Of a DNA stretch of 31,140 bases, positions 3,075-30,175 are shown one piece after another. This DNA comes from a virus. The DNA lies in IMG/VR virus record IMGVR_UViG_3300037504_000994, positions 1-31,140 of that record; one strand, 5' to 3'. Each line of letters starts with the position of its first letter. Positions within the stretch are counted from its first letter, which is position 1. The notes beneath the pieces were generated by a model. The model was not told where the DNA came from. It searched no databases and saw only the letters and a list, made by a program, of their open reading frames with translations. The position numbers and the translations under genes were made by a program.

Positions 3075-4013
3075 ATGTCCAGGCTCAATCTGACGCTCGA
3101 CCAAACCATCGACGGATTCCTGCTCCACTGCCAGTCCAAACGCCTCAGCCGGCACACCATCCGCAACTACCGATATGCCCTCGATAAACTGCTCACCCAC
3201 GTCCCCGGCACCACGCCCCTGGGGGACATCACCGTCCGCGACGTTTCTGCTGCCCTGGCTACCTACACCGACCTGAGCAAAAAGACGATGTCCAACGTCC
3301 ACGCCGCGCTCAGCGCGATGTGGAACTGGGCCGTCCGCCAGGAGTACGCCGACGAGAATCCTCTCGAACGCATCGACCGCCCCAAACCCGAGAAACGCAC
3401 CATCGTCCCCCTGACCGCTGACGAGATTAAGGCCCTCCTCAAATCCTGTGCCCAAACGAGGGCCTACACCCGGCCCGGCAAGCGCGCCTGTACCAACAGC
3501 CGGCCCACTGCCGTCCGGGATCGCGCCATCATCCTGACACTGCTCGACACCGGTCTCCGCGCTTCCGAGCTCTGCAACCTGACCATCGCCGACTACAACC
3601 AGCGGCGCAATCGCATTAGCGTATTTGGCAAGGGCTCGAAGGAGCGCACCATTCCCATCTCCACCCAGACCGCCGAGGCAATCTGGGAGTATCTGGCCAC
3701 GCGCAACAAAGCCACCACCCTGATGGATGAGCCCCTCTTCACCACATCCACCGGCCGTTCCTTGGACCGCCACCAACTCCGGCGCCTCCTCGTCCGCCTG
3801 GCCGACGCAGCCGGCGTCGAGGATGTCCACCCCCACAAGTTCCGCCACACGTTTGCCATCTTTTACCTGCGCAACGAGGGCGACATCTACAGCCTGCAGG
3901 AGATCCTTGGCCATAGCACGCTCGATATGGTCAAAAACTACCTGACCATCGCCCAGACCGACATCGACAAGGCCCACAAGCGCGCTTCCCCTGTCGCCAA
4001 TATGCGTTTGTGA
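3075..4013 (+). CDS. int: Tyrosine-recombinase integrase
   Basis: This is a 312-aa protein of XerC/D-like size that would integrate and excise the phage at the neighbouring att core. Residues ~5-95 form the SAM-like core-binding domain (TIDGFLLHCQSKRLSRHTIR). The catalytic domain shows all the expected residues: R162 in TGLRASEL, K186 or K189 in FGKGSKERTI, H254 and R257 in HPHKFRHTF, H280 in ILGHSTLDM, and the nucleophile Y289 in VKNYL. An arm-binding N-terminal extension like that of lambda Int is absent or very short, although arm-type repeats are present nearby. The start is clear: GGAGG seven bases upstream. An insertion between residues ~124 and 147 (AQTRAYTRPGKRACTN) is longer than in typical Xer proteins. 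Confidence 0.93.
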   Translation: MSRLNLTLDQTIDGFLLHCQSKRLSRHTIRNYRYALDKLLTHVPGTTPLGDITVRDVSAALATYTDLSKKTMSNVHAALSAMWNWAVRQEYADENPLERIDRPKPEKRTIVPLTADEIKALLKSCAQTRAYTRPGKRACTNSRPTAVRDRAIILTLLDTGLRASELCNLTIADYNQRRNRISVFGKGSKERTIPISTQTAEAIWEYLATRNKATTLMDEPLFTTSTGRSLDRHQLRRLLVRLADAAGVEDVHPHKFRHTFAIFYLRNEGDIYSLQEILGHSTLDMVKNYLTIAQTDIDKAHKRASPVANMRL

Positions 4014-13232: not shown

Positions 13233-14762
13233 CTAGTAAATCCACACGTCCCCGCCCTGCCAGGTCGACGTGTTCCACGTGCCCGCCGTCGCCCCGTAGT
13301 CATAGGCCTCTTCCAGATCCATAGAGACCACGTGCTCGCCCGTCCGGAAGTCGATCTCGTGCCGCAACCCGTAGATGAATCCCTCGAAGCTGCTCAGGCC
13401 CACCTGCGTCTCCGTCACGTCCACCCGGTCCACCAGCTCCAGATCGCGCGCCGCCGCCATCATCGTGGCGTTGTAGTTGGCCAGGAACTGCACGTTCCGC
13501 ACCATCCCCCGCGGGTCCTTGTAGTAATCGAGCAGGAAGTCGGCCAATGACGCCGCCTCTGCCTCACTGCTGATCAGCACCGCGTCGATGGGCAGCCGCA
13601 GCTTGCCGTAGAGTCCCTGGCTCGTCGCGTCCTCCTCTACCAGCGTCACCGACCGCGCCCGGACCGCGTAGCCGCGCACCCGCAGCGTCTGCACGTAGAC
13701 GGCGTGAGCCGCGCCGTTGGTCAGCGTCACCTCGGCGTGATCGCCGTAGGCGTCCATACCGGAGGTGACGTTGGAAGTCTCGTCGTCGCCCTCCCCGCCC
13801 TCGTCGCTGGTACATTCGTAATCCGTCGACGCCACCGGTGTAATCGCGTCTTTGCCGCCCAATGAGACGGCGATGTTGCTGGGATCCTGGTAGCGGATCG
13901 TGAAGGTGCGGCTCGCCCCGGCCTCGATGATCGGCGCCGTGCCGTCCGAAAGCTTCCCCAGCACCTCCGGAGAGGATCCCACCCTGCGGGGATGGCACGT
14001 CACCTCGATGTAGTTGAAGATCTGAGTCTCGCTCATCTCGTAGTCCAGCCCGATCATCGTGTCGTCCAGCGTCAGCTCCGCCGCCGCGTCCAGCGGCATC
14101 TGGTGCCGGTTGATGAAGGTCGGCTTGCCGTCGCCGGCGAAGAAGAACTTGCCCCAGTCCGCCGTGCACGCATCCAGCACCTTGTCGCTGGCCCGGATAT
14201 CCTGGACCGGTCCGTTGGCCGCTTCGCGCTCCCAACTCCACCGGTCGGAGCTGGTCGGGAAGAGATTGATCCCTGCCTGGAAGTCGGTGGTCGGTGGGGA
14301 GTCGTAGACCGCGTTGATCACGTCGTCGATCACCTCGTCGGCGTAGACGTCGGTCACCAGCGCGATAGCGCCCTCGCTGGTGTCCAGCACCTTCATATCG
14401 TCTACGCACTCGATCATCGTCACCCGGTCCGCGCTGTACTGGTCCGCCGTCGGCTTGATCGAGGTCAGGTAGCCCGCGAATAGCGTCGTCGTCGTCCCGT
14501 CATAGGTCATCTCGAACTTGACCTTGCGCCGGGGCCGCACGTTGGCCGCCAGCGGCGGGCTGTAGTCCTGGTCCACGTTGTTCAGAATCGCGCTCAGTCG
14601 CCCCACCCGCGTCATCCGGGCCAGCGGATCGGAGAATCCCCGGTCGATGACGACCTTGTCCAGCATATCCGAGGTGACGTCCTCGCCGGCGTCGCCGTAG
14701 TCTCCATCCCCGTTCCAGTCGATGGAGAGCGTGTAGGTTGCCGTTTCCGTCGTGACCGTCAT
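13233..14762 (-). CDS. Tail hub / minor tail protein
   Basis: This is a 509-aa protein. The opening (TYTLSIDWNGDGDYGDAGED) and long beta-rich body are typical of the baseplate hub or minor tail protein encoded after the tape measure in siphoviruses. The NGDGDYGDAGED stretch has EF-hand-like calcium-binding spacing of Asp and Gly. It is separated from the tape measure gene by the plus-strand moron cassette, breaking the usual direct succession. Its ribosome-binding site AGGGGA lies inside the left arm of copy 5 of the 27-bp palindrome, so a protein bound there, or that arm in mRNA, could affect it. Confidence 0.7.
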   Translation of the reverse strand: MTVTTETATYTLSIDWNGDGDYGDAGEDVTSDMLDKVVIDRGFSDPLARMTRVGRLSAILNNVDQDYSPPLAANVRPRRKVKFEMTYDGTTTTLFAGYLTSIKPTADQYSADRVTMIECVDDMKVLDTSEGAIALVTDVYADEVIDDVINAVYDSPPTTDFQAGINLFPTSSDRWSWEREAANGPVQDIRASDKVLDACTADWGKFFFAGDGKPTFINRHQMPLDAAAELTLDDTMIGLDYEMSETQIFNYIEVTCHPRRVGSSPEVLGKLSDGTAPIIEAGASRTFTIRYQDPSNIAVSLGGKDAITPVASTDYECTSDEGGEGDDETSNVTSGMDAYGDHAEVTLTNGAAHAVYVQTLRVRGYAVRARSVTLVEEDATSQGLYGKLRLPIDAVLISSEAEAASLADFLLDYYKDPRGMVRNVQFLANYNATMMAAARDLELVDRVDVTETQVGLSSFEGFIYGLRHEIDFRTGEHVVSMDLEEAYDYGATAGTWNTSTWQGGDVWIY

Positions 14763-14763
14763 T

Positions 14764-14790
14764 GTTCCCCTAATTCACTATTAGCAGACC
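14764..14790. repeat. 27-bp dispersed palindrome, copy 5
   Basis: Arms GTTCCCCTAA and TTAGCAGACC flank the spacer TTCACTA. It overlaps the ribosome-binding site of the hub gene and ends four bases before the SOS box of the divergent moron promoter. Confidence 0.85.
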
Positions 14791-14794
14791 ACTA

Positions 14795-14838
14795 GAACGC
14801 ACGTTCCATTGACGCCGACCACCGACATGGCGTATACT
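14795..14838 (+). promoter_or_regulatory. SOS-boxed sigma-70 promoter of the moron gene
   Basis: GAACGCACGTTC (14795-14806) is a perfect GAAC-N4-GTTC box that fits the B. subtilis RNRY rule. Two bases later TTGACG (14809-14814) and, after 18 bases, TATACT (14833-14838) form a strong promoter, with a start expected near 14845. LexA bound there would cover the -35. Confidence 0.75.
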
Positions 14839-14844
14839 GTAGAT

Positions 14845-15010
14845 GAGCCTGCAGCTCACACACAGCCGAAAGTCGAATGCACATATTCCAAAGAAGCATG
14901 GTACAATGATCATGCAGGTCCCTGATCGGCGGCTTTCTCTGTGAGTTGCAGGCTCCGGAAAGTGCAGCGGTCGGGGATCTGTCTATGTTACAGAGCGAAG
15001 GAGCCTGCAA
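14845..15010 (+). ncRNA. Structured leader with alternative hairpins (possible RNA switch)
   Basis: Segment A (14845-14860, GAGCCTGCAGCTCACA) can pair with segment B (14940-14955) over 16 bases with one G-U. The last 11 bases of B, TTGCAGGCTCC (14946-14956), can instead pair perfectly with segment C, GGAGCCTGCAA (15000-15010). C contains the Shine-Dalgarno sequence and ends at the base before the ATG. A:B would leave translation open; B:C would close it. A begins at the predicted transcript start. Smaller hairpins, GCATG/CATGC (14896-14915) and TCTGT/ACAGA near 14980, lie inside the loops. A possible inner promoter, TACAAT (14902), would give an RNA without A. Confidence 0.55.
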
Positions 15011-15322
15011 ATGCCTACACACTCTGACCCACCCGCGGATGCGTCCGCACCGGAAGCCGACCTGCCCCGAGAGCAGATCCTCACGATGACCCTGGGCGAA
15101 TACCTCGCCCATATGGGCCGCAACGAAACGATCTGCCGCCGCAACCATTTCACCGGCGCCGTCCTCGCCGCCCTGGAGCAGACGCCCCTGGGCGAATGGC
15201 CCGAGACCGTCGCCCACGCCGTCACCGTCAGCGTCCAACAAGCCGCCGTCGACCATCCTGATCCTCAGTATCTCCTCTGGGAAATCGGCCGCGCCATCGT
15301 CGTTGCCTCCATCGAGCTCTAG
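15011..15322 (+). CDS. Plus-strand moron gene inside the tail operon, unknown function
   Basis: This is a 103-aa protein (MPTHSDPPADASAPEADLPR...). It is the only gene on the plus strand within the 26-kb late region, inserted between tape measure and hub. It has its own promoter, LexA-type box, structured leader and terminator, the defining layout of a moron. The first ~20 residues are disordered; residues 25-103 look like a compact helical domain (LTMTLGEYLAHMGRNETICR, WPETVAHAVTVSVQQAA, YLLWEIGRAIVVASIEL). No signal peptide or clear membrane segment is present. The start has GAAGGAG eight bases upstream. The family is unknown. Control suggests a product made on DNA damage and tuned by RNA structure; anti-host, anti-repressor or exclusion functions are all open. 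Confidence 0.7.
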   Translation: MPTHSDPPADASAPEADLPREQILTMTLGEYLAHMGRNETICRRNHFTGAVLAALEQTPLGEWPETVAHAVTVSVQQAAVDHPDPQYLLWEIGRAIVVASIEL

Positions 15323-15328
15323 CCCCAC

Positions 15329-15362
15329 GCCCCTCCCCCGCATATCGACGTGGGGGAGGGGC
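15329..15362. terminator. Bidirectional terminator-like hairpin after the moron gene
   Basis: GCCCCTCCCCC (15329-15339) pairs with GGGGGAGGGGC (15352-15362), an 11-bp perfect stem with a 12-base loop. It lies between the convergent ends of the moron gene and the tape measure gene. No T-tract follows on either strand. Confidence 0.7.
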
Positions 15363-15378
15363 CCTTCGTCTGTCCGCA

Positions 15379-16950
15379 TCACCGCAGCCGTGCTCCCCGC
15401 AGGATCCCGCGATCCTCCAACTCCCGGATCACCCGCTGGGCCGTCGCGCCGGGGCTTCCCGCGTCCGGAATCACGATATCGCCGTTCCACACCGACCCAC
15501 CGTTGTTCACCGTGCCCCCACCGCCGCCCGTCAGCGGCGTAATAAAGACCCCGGATGACGTCGCCCGCATAAACTCAGGCTGCCCGCCCTCTCCGACCAC
15601 GCCCGTCCGGCCCGCCGGCAGGAACCCGCCCGTCGCGAATCCTCGGCTATATGCCCCACCGGTGATATCATCCATAAACTCCTCGCGACCACCGGCGCGC
15701 TCCTGGCGCACCTTCATCAACATCTCAATCTCCAGCCGGGTGGGAACGTCGTTCAGTGCATCGCGAATCCTGTTGATCGCATCGCGAACCCGGTCGCCCT
15801 GGCTGGCTGTTTCCTGCATCGAATCCCGCAGCTTGCTTTGATTGTCCAAAAACGCCGATGTCGCGGCTTCCGAATCCATCAGCGCTTGGTTATATTGATC
15901 GTGCGCGACAGCCGTGTCGCTGGTTCCGTTTGCCAGATCCCGCTGTACCCTGGCCACCACGCTGTTAGTTTCCGCGTAACGCTCTGCCAATCCGGTATAC
16001 CGTTGCGTTTCCGCGCTCACAGCCTGCAAACGGCCCTCAATGTCGTCTAAACCGACGCGGCTTTCTCCCCAGATTGTTCGGGTGCGATTCATCATTGAGT
16101 TGTAATGCGCCTGGCTGGCCGCCGCGTCACCGAATATCCGTGCATAATCGTTGATCGCCGACTGTTGATCGTTGACCTCCCGCGTCACTTTTGCGATCCC
16201 CCTGGCCATCGTGCCCAATATTGGGGCGAATCCACGACCCAACTCCGACTTTAGGTCGGCCCACGCGGCTTTAGCCTGCAGCACCGATGTGACGTTATCC
16301 TCGACGGTGCCATCCAGTTTCTCATATTTCTCATTCATCAACTCCAAGATCGCAGTGTCGAACGCCTCGTTAGCGTCCATTCCCGCATCCTTAAGCTCTT
16401 GAATGCGCTCCGTAGCCTCCTCGACGCCGATGCCGAAACTGTCGACTCGGGCCAGGGAGTCATTTGACATCATGATTTGAAACTGCTGCATCGTTCCGCC
16501 GAAGCGCCCGCCCAGCGCGTCGACGTTGCGCGTGATATCCGCGATGCCCTCCGCGCTGTCGGCCAGCCCCAGCGCCATCAGGTTGGTGGCGTCTTCCATC
16601 AACTGGGCCTCGCTGCGCGTGTAGAGCGTTGCCTCCTGGAGCTGATCGAGCATTATTGTCGCGCGCTGGCTACCGCCCGCGATGCGTTCAAAGGAACGCT
16701 CGGAGCGTTCGGCTTGCGCGCCGAGCTCGGCCAACTCCACAGTGACCTGTGCTACCTTCCTGGCCGCAGCTACAGCGCCGATGGCCTTGAGCGTGTTGGT
16801 GAGCTTGGTGAAACCGTCGTCGGCTTGACGAGACCCAGCGTCTGCCTTGCGCGTCACATCGTCAAGTCCCTGTAACTCCTGCTTGGCATCCTGGATGTCG
16901 CGGGTAGCCTCATCCAGCATACTCAATATGATCTCGACCCTACTCGCCAT
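15379..16950 (-). CDS. Tape measure protein (short)
   Basis: This is a 523-aa protein that sets tail length and is threaded through the tube. The N-terminus (MASRVEIILSMLDEATRDIQ) and the long helical stretches with Ala/Gln/Glu heptads are typical. The C-terminal Gly-rich segment (GGAYSRGFATGGFLPAGRTG, EGGQPEFMRATSSGVFITPL) is a hallmark of tape measure C-termini. It follows two tail-assembly chaperones, as expected, overlapping the second by 11 bases. It is short for the family; at about 0.15 nm per residue it predicts a tail of roughly 80 nm. Confidence 0.85.
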   Translation of the reverse strand: MASRVEIILSMLDEATRDIQDAKQELQGLDDVTRKADAGSRQADDGFTKLTNTLKAIGAVAAARKVAQVTVELAELGAQAERSERSFERIAGGSQRATIMLDQLQEATLYTRSEAQLMEDATNLMALGLADSAEGIADITRNVDALGGRFGGTMQQFQIMMSNDSLARVDSFGIGVEEATERIQELKDAGMDANEAFDTAILELMNEKYEKLDGTVEDNVTSVLQAKAAWADLKSELGRGFAPILGTMARGIAKVTREVNDQQSAINDYARIFGDAAASQAHYNSMMNRTRTIWGESRVGLDDIEGRLQAVSAETQRYTGLAERYAETNSVVARVQRDLANGTSDTAVAHDQYNQALMDSEAATSAFLDNQSKLRDSMQETASQGDRVRDAINRIRDALNDVPTRLEIEMLMKVRQERAGGREEFMDDITGGAYSRGFATGGFLPAGRTGVVGEGGQPEFMRATSSGVFITPLTGGGGGTVNNGGSVWNGDIVIPDAGSPGATAQRVIRELEDRGILRGARLR

Positions 16951-27800: not shown

Positions 27801-29377
27801 GATACCTCCTCTGGAGCAAAGGTGAGGGCCAGGGCGTCCAACAAATCTGGGCTTCGCCCAAGGCTTTTACGCAGCTTTTCCTTATCCGTCACCTTGATCT
27901 CTCCCTTCTTCACTGCATAGCGAGGAGCGCATAGCTCATCCGCTAAGTCCTCATTAGGGGGCAGGGCTGCCTCCGGATCCGTGCGCAACCACTCTCTCAC
28001 GCGCCACAGCATCTGATCCCGCAGAAGCCCGAACTCGCCCTCCTCGACGATCTCCGTTGCGGAGCTGGCCACCTTGACGGCGACGGCTGCCCCGTCGTAG
28101 GGCTTCATCAATCCGGCGTCGAGATCCTGCTCCCAGCGCCGGTACATCTGTGGGGCCACGCCTGATCCTAACCCTGTCGCATCGACAAAGGAGACCTCTG
28201 CGTTGCGCTCGTAGGCCGCGCGGGCCGCGCGGTCGCCGGTCACCAGCACGTCCACCCCACTCCACGTCTCGAAATGATCTACCCAGGATCCGTACCGCCA
28301 GCAGGCAGCGTTACGGTCCGTGCCGAACTCCGCCACATCCTGCCCGTGGATCGGTCGCACGCCCTCCGGCGGCTTCGCTCCTACCCGCTCACGACGTGCC
28401 ACCCACCGAGCCATTGCGGCTTGTACCCAGGCCCTGGCGATAAGCTGGTTCTCGGATTGGCCCGGATACCGGGCCAATACCATATAGGCCAGCGCGGGGT
28501 TGGTGATCTCGCGCCACTCCCCGCCGACCAGCGGCCCCAGCTCCTGCCCGTTCTTCGCAGTCGCCTTGGCGCCGTCCAGATAATTCGGTACCCTAAACCA
28601 ATCCGGGCTGTCGTCTGGCACGTCCTCGCCCGTTGCCGCGGGCCGGCTCCACTCACAAATGCGCCGGACCGTCGTTTCGCGATCCACCGCACCCGGAATC
28701 ACGTTGCGTCCGGTGACCACGTTCGGATGACCGAATGCATCCAGGATCACTACGTTGGCCTCGCCGCTCTGAATCATCCGATAGACCGGGCCCGAGGCGT
28801 CCCGCGGGTTGAACATCACCAACAGTCGGACGTGCCCGCCCGACATACAGCTCTCAATGCCCTTGTACACCTCGTCCGGCACCGCGTCGCCCTCGTCCAC
28901 GATAAACAATAGGTGCGGCGCGTGCACGCCGCTGAATTTCGCCTCGCGTTGCGCCGGCGTCCCGCTCTGTGGAATCGCTCGTCCAACCATCCACCAATCC
29001 GGCGCCACCTCGATATTCAGGTAGCCGGCCGTCATATCCTCGACGACCTCCGAGGCAGCCATCATCCGCGCTTCAACCTCACTCCACAACAGGTTTTCCA
29101 GGTTTTCGAGGGGCGGCGCCGCCGTCGCGATGACCTTGGCCCGCGGGAAGGTGCTGAGAAACCACAGCGCGATACCGCTGGCCACATACGTCTTGCCGAC
29201 CGCGTTGGCCGACTGCACGACCGTCACCGTGTAGTCTCGCACGCTCTCGCTGACCTGCTCCTGCGCATCGATGAGATTGCAGCCCAACACGCTCCCGATG
29301 AAGCCGTTGGGGTCTGTCTGATAGCGCGTCAGATTCGCGCTAGTCCGTGTCGGCATCTGCTGCAGACGTTCCAGCAT
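27785..29377 (-). CDS. terL: Terminase large subunit
   Basis: This is a 530-aa ATPase-nuclease that packages DNA. From ATG 29377, QSANAVGKTYVASGI (~56) is the Walker A motif, LLFIVDEGDAV (~157) Walker B with catalytic Glu, and FNPRDASG the coupling motif. The RNase H-like nuclease shows HGQDVAEFGTDRNA (~345, two Asp), FVDATGLGSG (~398) and SPDLLDALAL (~510). The start is uncertain: ATG 29377 has GAAGGTG close upstream, while the in-frame ATG at 29449 would overlap the small subunit gene by 110 bases. A degenerate copy of the 27-bp palindrome lies near its end. Confidence 0.93.
   Translation of the reverse strand: MLERLQQMPTRTSANLTRYQTDPNGFIGSVLGCNLIDAQEQVSESVRDYTVTVVQSANAVGKTYVASGIALWFLSTFPRAKVIATAAPPLENLENLLWSEVEARMMAASEVVEDMTAGYLNIEVAPDWWMVGRAIPQSGTPAQREAKFSGVHAPHLLFIVDEGDAVPDEVYKGIESCMSGGHVRLLVMFNPRDASGPVYRMIQSGEANVVILDAFGHPNVVTGRNVIPGAVDRETTVRRICEWSRPAATGEDVPDDSPDWFRVPNYLDGAKATAKNGQELGPLVGGEWREITNPALAYMVLARYPGQSENQLIARAWVQAAMARWVARRERVGAKPPEGVRPIHGQDVAEFGTDRNAACWRYGSWVDHFETWSGVDVLVTGDRAARAAYERNAEVSFVDATGLGSGVAPQMYRRWEQDLDAGLMKPYDGAAVAVKVASSATEIVEEGEFGLLRDQMLWRVREWLRTDPEAALPPNEDLADELCAPRYAVKKGEIKVTDKEKLRKSLGRSPDLLDALALTFAPEEVSWLLH
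27937..27963. repeat. 27-bp dispersed palindrome, degenerate copy 10
   Basis: Arms CATCCGCTAA and TTAGGGGGCA flank the spacer GTCCTCA. It is inside the terL gene. Left arm 7 of 10, right arm 6 of 10; the CTAA-N7-TTAG centre is intact. It is the weakest copy. Confidence 0.45.
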
Positions 29378-30146
29378 CTTCACCTTCGCCCATGTCGGCC
29401 ACTCTCTCCAATTGCTGCTCAATCGCGCTTTCAAGTCCCTGCACCTCAATTGGCAATGCTACACCCCGCAGCCGCGTGATAGTATCCGCGGCTTCCTCGT
29501 CAGATAGTGCCAATAGCGTCTCGCTCGCCTTGATCCCGTGCTGGTCGCGATTCTCCTTAGCCGTGTCCCGCAGGCCCTGGACCGCGTCCAGGCTCCCCTC
29601 GGCGATCGCTCGGCGCCGCAATTGCGACGCACGTGCTTCAATGGCTGCTGTCTGCTCGTCTCTCCAACGAAGGGCGGCCCTTGTAGCTATCTCCAGAGCT
29701 TCCGAAATAGCTGGATCATTCTGCCATCGTTGGTACCAAATCCGTTGATTACATACACGGGGATCTTCAAAGACATGGCTCCATGGCACGTCGTTTGCTG
29801 TTGCACTGGCCAACAAGAGTACGGTCGCCCGCTTTTTGGCCACGTGCGGCTTTTTAATCTCATCCAACGCTCGACGTAAGTCTATATTTAGCCAACCAAC
29901 CGCTTCTGGTGGCGTATCTTTGCTCCACCATCTCCAAGTTAGGCTCATCTGGTACCACAGATCCGCCGAGGTACCGAAAGCCTCCCCGAGCGCCTTCGCG
30001 AAATCCCTGGTGATAGCTCTGTCTTTCTCTAGAATCTTATGTAGCACAGCAAGTTCCAAGCCGGACGTGCGGGACAGGTCTTCTAGGGACCATCCCCGCT
30101 CCTCCAACTCCCGCTCTATCACATCTCCCGGCCTTGAAACTCGCAT
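29340..30146 (-). CDS. Small terminase candidate with N-terminal HigA-like HTH
   Basis: This is a 268-aa protein starting at ATG 30146, with AGGAG four bases upstream. Residues 1-70 (RPGDVIERELEERGWSLEDL, ITRDFAKALGEAFGTSADLW) closely follow HigA-type antitoxin/XRE domains, including the helix after the HTH with the FGTSADLWYQ signature. The middle (VFEDPRVCNQRIWYQRWQND, ISEALEIATRAALRW) resembles the DNA-binding part of small terminases. The rest is a helical oligomerisation region. Its place before terL supports a TerS role. The extra HTH is unusual and may let it bind an operator as well as the pac or cos site. Confidence 0.65.
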   Translation of the reverse strand: MRVSRPGDVIERELEERGWSLEDLSRTSGLELAVLHKILEKDRAITRDFAKALGEAFGTSADLWYQMSLTWRWWSKDTPPEAVGWLNIDLRRALDEIKKPHVAKKRATVLLLASATANDVPWSHVFEDPRVCNQRIWYQRWQNDPAISEALEIATRAALRWRDEQTAAIEARASQLRRRAIAEGSLDAVQGLRDTAKENRDQHGIKASETLLALSDEEAADTITRLRGVALPIEVQGLESAIEQQLERVADMGEGEDAGTSAADADTD

Positions 30147-30175
30147 CGGTCTCCTAACAATCCCGTACGGGCATC

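What the first reader, a model, noticed from the sequence alone, without database searches (positions are those of the whole stretch)
14845..15013. Three-segment RNA switch candidate controlling the moron's ribosome-binding site
One central segment (14940-14956) is complementary both to the very 5' end of the predicted transcript (16 pairs) and to the 11 bases that hold the Shine-Dalgarno and reach the start codon. The two helices cannot exist together. This anti-sequestor/sequestor logic is that of attenuators and riboswitches. A possible inner promoter near 14902 would give an RNA lacking the first segment and so locked off. With the SOS box this would be double control of one small phage gene.
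Basis: partly seen in the sequence, partly recalled or inferred. Interest (0 to 1): 0.8.

Follow-up and report, generated by a model that had tools for sequence, protein, structure and literature searches.

The report
Folding RNA leader of phage gene
The start of one small phage gene's messenger RNA can fold in competing ways, one of which hides the ribosome landing site; the folds are far beyond chance, but no relative exists to show that evolution kept them and nothing shows what would throw the switch.

Summary
Segment A (14845-14860) pairs with B (14940-14955) in 16 unbroken pairs. B (14946-14956) pairs perfectly with C (15000-15010), the 11 bases holding the Shine-Dalgarno (SD) up to the AUG. 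No dinucleotide shuffle in 3000 gives this, and among 972 SD-bearing starts in 1.25 Mb of viral DNA it is the most extreme case.

Folding predicts that the full-length RNA is committed to A:B with B:C absent, a default-ON leader. The claim that an RNA from the inner promoter is locked OFF is not established: D:E, not B:C, wins in the standard nested model, though other parameters for one 3' end, and a rough pseudoknot estimate, allow B:C.

The protein, leader and neighbouring tail genes have no usable relatives in any collection searched, so covariation could not be tested, and no trigger is known. SOS-box-plus-folded-leader control has precedents (tisB, dinQ, timP). New variant of a known kind, moderate interest.

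The parts
14793..14808 (+). operator-like palindrome TAGAACGCACGTTCCA (LexA-type GAAC-N4-GTTC, or site of the phage's own repressor)
   Evidence: two similar intergenic sites at 1586-1601 and 2647-2662; GAAC-N4-GTTC is the Gram-positive LexA motif (PMC3323433)
14809..14838 (+). sigma-70-like promoter TTGACG-18-TATACT; start expected about 14845
   Evidence: 10 of 12 matches
14845..14860 (+). segment A, 5' end of the predicted transcript; pairs with B (16 pairs)
14878..14907 (+). inner promoter-like site TGCACA-18-TACAAT with TGn before the second hexamer; start would be about 14914, at the first base of D
   Evidence: 9 of 12 matches; consensus only
14940..14956 (+). segment B, shared: 14940-14955 pairs with A, 14946-14956 pairs with C
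14968..14982 (+). segment E, pairs with D
15000..15010 (+). segment C GGAGCCTGCAA: Shine-Dalgarno and spacer up to the start codon; 11 perfect pairs with B
15011..15322 (+). small gene, 103 aa, no recognised family; modest coding signal
15329..15362 (+). 13-bp G+C hairpin after the stop codon, terminator-like but without a T run
   Evidence: not listed by the terminator scan

Best explanation
The 166-nt leader of a small, singly transcribed phage gene is a cis-acting RNA that folds in competing ways and sets access to the gene's Shine-Dalgarno. As the main transcript emerges, its 5' end (A) captures B; this leaves the SD segment (C) unmasked and the gene translatable. If A is missing or occupied (inner promoter, 5' cleavage, a bound RNA or protein, a ribosome in the leader), B is released and either folds into the D:E hairpin or pairs with C and shuts the SD. 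Shown by computation: the helices, their rarity, their exclusivity, the predicted dominance of A:B in the full-length RNA, and the plus-strand bias of D:E. Inferred: transcript starts, that the helices form in the cell, that they control translation, and the direction of control (default ON, OFF on loss of A). Unknown: the trigger and the function of the 103-aa protein. The gene's promoter is probably also under LexA or the phage repressor.
For: Helices and rarity. Stability: A..B z -5.1, D..E z -4.3, B..C z -2.2 on the plus strand. Strand bias: D..E z is only -1.95 on the minus strand because four of its pairs are G-U; the whole leader gives z -2.66 plus against -1.56 minus. Order of folding: A:B reaches probability 1.0 when the RNA ends at 14955, 45 nt before C is made. 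A:B holds with three parameter sets and from 25 to 65 C. No frame of the leader looks coding. The single non-WC pair of A:B is a G-U on the plus strand, and B's U there pairs perfectly with C.
Against: No homologue of leader or gene in viral, genome, phage or plasmid collections (one search gave only short weak matches), so no covariation. A:B is so stable that a real switch needs an unidentified strong trigger. The SD is only about half unpaired even in the A:B fold. No RNA family matches at the curated threshold. The gene's coding signal is modest.
Confidence: 0.5

Rival explanations
1. Static leader: the A:B stem simply forms, for example protecting the 5' end from decay and keeping B off the RBS, and B:C never forms in the cell. 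No switching and no signal.
For: A:B is predicted at probability about 1 in the full RNA under all models, 7-16 kcal/mol better than the B:C fold. The predicted start coincides with the first base of A, so the 5' end would be fully base-paired.
Against: A perfect 11-bp complement ending one base before AUG would be an odd thing to keep if it were never used: 1 of 972 starts. D:E adds a second way to occupy B.
Confidence: 0.22
2. The three copies are DNA sites (half-sites at +1, in the leader and at the RBS) bound by a phage or host protein, possibly with looping.
For: X...rcX...X arrangements elsewhere in the 1.25 Mb of viral DNA (five other loci) include palindromic, operator-like arrays (L122, L071). 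Copy A lies at the predicted start, a usual operator position. The phage encodes at least two HTH proteins.
Against: The copies are not palindromic; there is no further copy with 0 or 1 mismatch in the window; a better operator candidate is at 14793-14808. D:E depends on four G-U pairs and is much weaker on the other strand, which DNA sites do not explain. C ends exactly before AUG and spans the SD.
Confidence: 0.12
3. SOS- or repressor-controlled leader of the type I toxin kind: 5' processing and an antisense RNA control the mRNA.
For: Same layout as tisB and dinQ: LexA-type site, promoter, long folded leader whose 5' end decides access to the RBS (PMC5668327); in timP, 5' truncation abolishes translation, possibly through an alternative SD-masking stem (PMC11228461).
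Against: The product is 103 aa with no obvious membrane span, whereas type I toxins are typically under 60 aa (PMC11264685 abstract). No minus-strand promoter-like site was found in 14400-15500. Predicted polarity is the reverse of tisB/dinQ, whose primary transcript is inert.
Confidence: 0.07
4. A:B are inverted repeats of a small invertible segment that carries the inner promoter (phase variation).
For: 16-bp inverted repeats flank 79 bp holding a promoter-like site; a tyrosine recombinase gene is present at 3075-4013.
Against: The recombinase matches phage integrase families; the third copy C at the RBS and the D:E helix are unexplained; the main promoter lies outside the segment.
Confidence: 0.04

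Closest known systems
tisB/istR-1 and dinQ/agrB (E. coli SOS-induced type I toxin mRNAs)
   Same: LexA-type site plus a long folded leader that sets access of ribosomes to one small gene; the 5' end of the primary transcript decides the fold (PMC5668327; PMC7708055)
   Different: There the primary transcript is inert and 5' processing activates it, and an antisense RNA exists; here the full-length RNA is predicted ON, the protein is 103 aa and no antisense RNA was found
timP mRNA leader (timPR)
   Same: The full-length transcript is active and 5' truncations lose translation, possibly through an alternative SD-masking stem; a pseudoknot is involved (PMC11228461)
   Different: No homology was found or tested; no TimR-like RNA; a pseudoknot here (D:E with B:C) is only an energy estimate
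Translational attenuators and ON riboswitches (anti-sequestor/sequestor leaders; own knowledge)
   Same: A central strand shared by two helices, one of which masks the SD
   Different: No Rfam match, no conserved sensor domain, no convincing leader peptide, and a 16-pair closing helix that would be hard for a ligand to tip

Membership tests
Translational riboswitch / anti-sequestor leader | Two mutually exclusive helices sharing a strand, one masking the SD | tested here: met
Translational riboswitch / anti-sequestor leader | Conserved aptamer or sensor domain | tested here: inconclusive
   No Rfam hit at gathering threshold. The one permissive hit, a microRNA family far below its cut-off, is just the D:E hairpin. 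No relatives for covariation.
Translational riboswitch / anti-sequestor leader | Ligand- or factor-dependent change of fold | not testable with these tools
   needs probing and reporters
Type I toxin mRNA (tisB/dinQ/timP kind) | Small hydrophobic, usually membrane-spanning toxin, typically under 60 aa | tested here: not met
   103 aa, no obvious membrane span by reading the sequence; predicted all-helical at low confidence; no toxin family
Type I toxin mRNA (tisB/dinQ/timP kind) | Antisense RNA gene at the locus | tested here: inconclusive
   no minus-strand promoter-like site in 14400-15500; a consensus scan cannot exclude one
LexA (SOS) regulon member | LexA-type operator at the promoter | tested here: inconclusive
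   GAACGCACGTTC 14795-14806 next to the -35, but host unknown and the phage has its own repressor; three like sites in the window
ermC-type leader-peptide attenuator | Translated short ORF whose stalled ribosome frees the RBS | tested here: inconclusive
   A 12-codon ORF 14906-14944 ends inside B, but has no clear SD

The most novel reading that the evidence does not exclude
A phage leader that makes translation depend on having the correct, regulated 5' end: only RNA from the controlled promoter carries segment A, the key that keeps the SD open, while leak RNA from the inner promoter or 5'-cut RNA collapses into a D:E plus B:C pseudoknot that masks it. It would be an RNA check of transcript origin added to operator control.
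Probability: 0.15. Interest if true: 0.65.

Novelty: new variant of a known kind. Interest (0 to 1): 0.42.

Why it matters
If it works as proposed, it is a compact phage-encoded ON-by-default translational switch keyed to the identity of the 5' end, with polarity opposite to the tisB/dinQ leaders. It would show that such control is not confined to bacterial toxin genes, and the segments are short enough for a clean compensatory-change test. Without relatives or a trigger it remains one unusual leader.

Tried and rejected
Relatives of the 103-aa protein: viral contigs, 84,980-species genomes, phage and plasmid collections, 26 related virus records; none. Relatives of the leader: spaced patterns for B..C and A..B in viral contigs found nothing; blastn found nothing in phages and only short weak matches in the coding part in plasmids. 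A first pattern, GGAGCCTGCAAATG, was too short and its many hits are what chance gives; they were used only as control DNA. Neighbouring hub gene: one distant relative, 29% identity; tape measure and major capsid: none; terminase gives 25 relatives at 43-58%, none with the hub or the small gene detected. Minus-strand 232-aa ORF 14792-15490 considered as the real gene and rejected: no coding signal over the leader in any frame, negative overall score. Rfam's permissive hit to mir-1323 over 14912-14983 rejected as a generic long hairpin. Transcription attenuation rejected: no terminator-like site in 14400-15500 and no T run after any of the helices. Single-sequence AlphaFold model too weak (pLDDT 61) to search folds with. 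Temperature switching: no change from 25 to 65 C.

Full report
What the window is. The window is a whole IMG/VR virus record of 31,140 bases, 61% G+C. It carries a repressor-like HTH gene (1094-1510 +), a tyrosine integrase (3075-4013 +) and a minus-strand structural set: terminase, portal, head morphogenesis, major capsid, tape measure (15379-16950), baseplate hub (13233-14762) and an amidase-bearing protein. It therefore looks like a temperate tailed phage. The gene of interest (15011-15322 +, 103 aa) runs against the structural operon, between tape measure and hub, with its own promoter-like site, a 166-nt leader and a G+C hairpin after the stop, which is a moron-like layout.

The observation. 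A:B (14845-14860 with 14940-14955) is 16 continuous pairs with one G-U; B:C (14946-14956 with 15000-15010) is 11 perfect pairs, and C is the stretch GGAGCCTGCAA directly before ATG. In 3000 dinucleotide-preserving shuffles of 14845-15013 no helix reached 15 Watson-Crick pairs, no shuffle had the shared-strand arrangement, and 15 had any helix of 11 or more. As an empirical control I took 972 SD-bearing ORF starts from all viral DNA fetched here (1.25 Mb): this start has the longest perfect masking helix (11; one other with 10; all the rest 8 or fewer) and the only long competitor for the masking strand (16 pairs; 9 in the other case). A scan of the same DNA for X...rcX...X within 180 nt (9-mers) found only five other loci, some of them palindromic operator-like arrays.

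A third helix. D (14914-14928) pairs with E (14968-14982) in 15 pairs, four of them G-U; 7 of 3000 shuffles have any helix of 15 pairs. The local hairpin has z -4.3 on the plus strand and only -1.95 on the minus strand. In nested folds D:E excludes both A:B and B:C. This strand bias is the best evidence here that the RNA, not the DNA, is what matters, although D:E was found by looking on the plus strand.

Is the leader really non-coding? A codon-usage score trained on ten of the phage's genes gives no positive frame between about 14780 and 15000, while the 103-aa frame is weakly positive (0.13 against 0.22-0.59 for the training genes) with G+C by codon position of 0.73/0.47/0.79, close to the phage's genes. 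The antisense 232-aa ORF is negative overall. I accept the small gene as probable, not proven.

What the RNA is predicted to do. In the full-length RNA A:B has probability about 1 for every 3' end tested; the best B:C fold is 7-16 kcal/mol worse. As the chain grows, A:B is complete at 14955, before C exists. The same holds with two other parameter sets and from 25 to 65 C. So the resting state is SD not masked by B, although local structure still pairs the SD about half the time. For RNA starting at the inner promoter (about 14914) the Turner model gives D:E (0.99-1.0 for 3' ends 15013, 15060 and 15100) and essentially no B:C at those ends; B:C takes over only when the 5' end lies past about 14919, which removes part of D. 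With Andronescu or Langdon parameters B:C wins for one of three 3' ends. D, B, E and C also lie in the order of an H-type pseudoknot with loops of 17, 11 and 17 nt, and a rough sum (stem energies plus a 9.6 kcal/mol penalty taken from memory) makes D:E plus B:C about as good as nested D:E. 'Locked off' is therefore possible but not established.

Conservation. None could be tested. The protein, the leader and the helices have no usable match in viral contigs, species genomes, phages or plasmids. Even the neighbouring hub has only a 29% relative, and tape measure and capsid have none. The tools warn that records very near the window may be left out. The absence of covariation data is a gap, not a negative result.

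The operator. TAGAACGCACGTTCCA (14793-14808) abuts the -35. Two like sites, TAGAACGTCCGTTCTA (1586) and TAGCACAGACGTTCTA (2647), sit upstream of TATAAT/TATACT on the minus strand before small ORFs. Shuffles expect 0.67 sites at up to 3 mismatches and 5 were seen. GAAC-N4-GTTC is the LexA motif of Gram-positive bacteria (PMC3323433), but the host is unknown and the sites may belong to the phage repressor.

Comparison. Folded leaders on SOS-controlled single genes are known: in tisB and dinQ the primary transcript is inert and 5' processing activates it (PMC5668327; PMC7708055). In timP the full-length RNA is active and 5' truncations are not, possibly through an alternative SD-masking stem (PMC11228461). 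The predicted behaviour here (ON with an intact 5' end) is nearer to timP. It is not a type I toxin by the size and character of the product, and it is not a member of any Rfam family. Works-like: a translational anti-sequestor leader. Membership: none shown.

Verdict. Real, non-random feature; most likely an RNA-level, default-ON translational control element of unknown trigger (confidence about 0.5). A static leader (0.22) and DNA sites (0.12) are the main rivals.

Noticed in passing
1586-1601, 2647-2662, 14793-14808: Three like palindromic operator-type sites (TAGAACGNNCGTTCTA with 0, 2 and 1 mismatches). The first two lie directly upstream of TATAAT/TATACT on the minus strand in near-identical contexts (GGTAGAACG...CTATAaTGGG...GGAGGTGA) before small ORFs; a small shared regulon, LexA or phage repressor.
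   Followed up: partly
14911-14985: Strong strand-specific hairpin D:E (z -4.3 plus, -1.95 minus) whose first paired base lies at the expected start of the inner promoter.
   Followed up: partly
14877-14944: Two overlapping short ORFs (10 and 12 codons, overlapping at ATGA); the second stops inside segment B. No clear Shine-Dalgarno.
   Followed up: partly
15329-15362: 13-bp G+C hairpin between the small gene and the tape-measure gene's end; any tail-operon read-through would run antisense over the whole small gene and its leader.
   Followed up: no
29340-30260: Minus-strand HTH protein (306 aa) resembling HigA-type antitoxins (phrog_1381 E 2.6e-12; TIGR02607 below cut-off) upstream of the terminase; no toxin partner looked for.
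   Followed up: no
L122:618-776: Array of the palindrome TGTGTACACA, at least five copies, upstream of a terminase-like gene in a related virus record; operator or iteron array.
   Followed up: no
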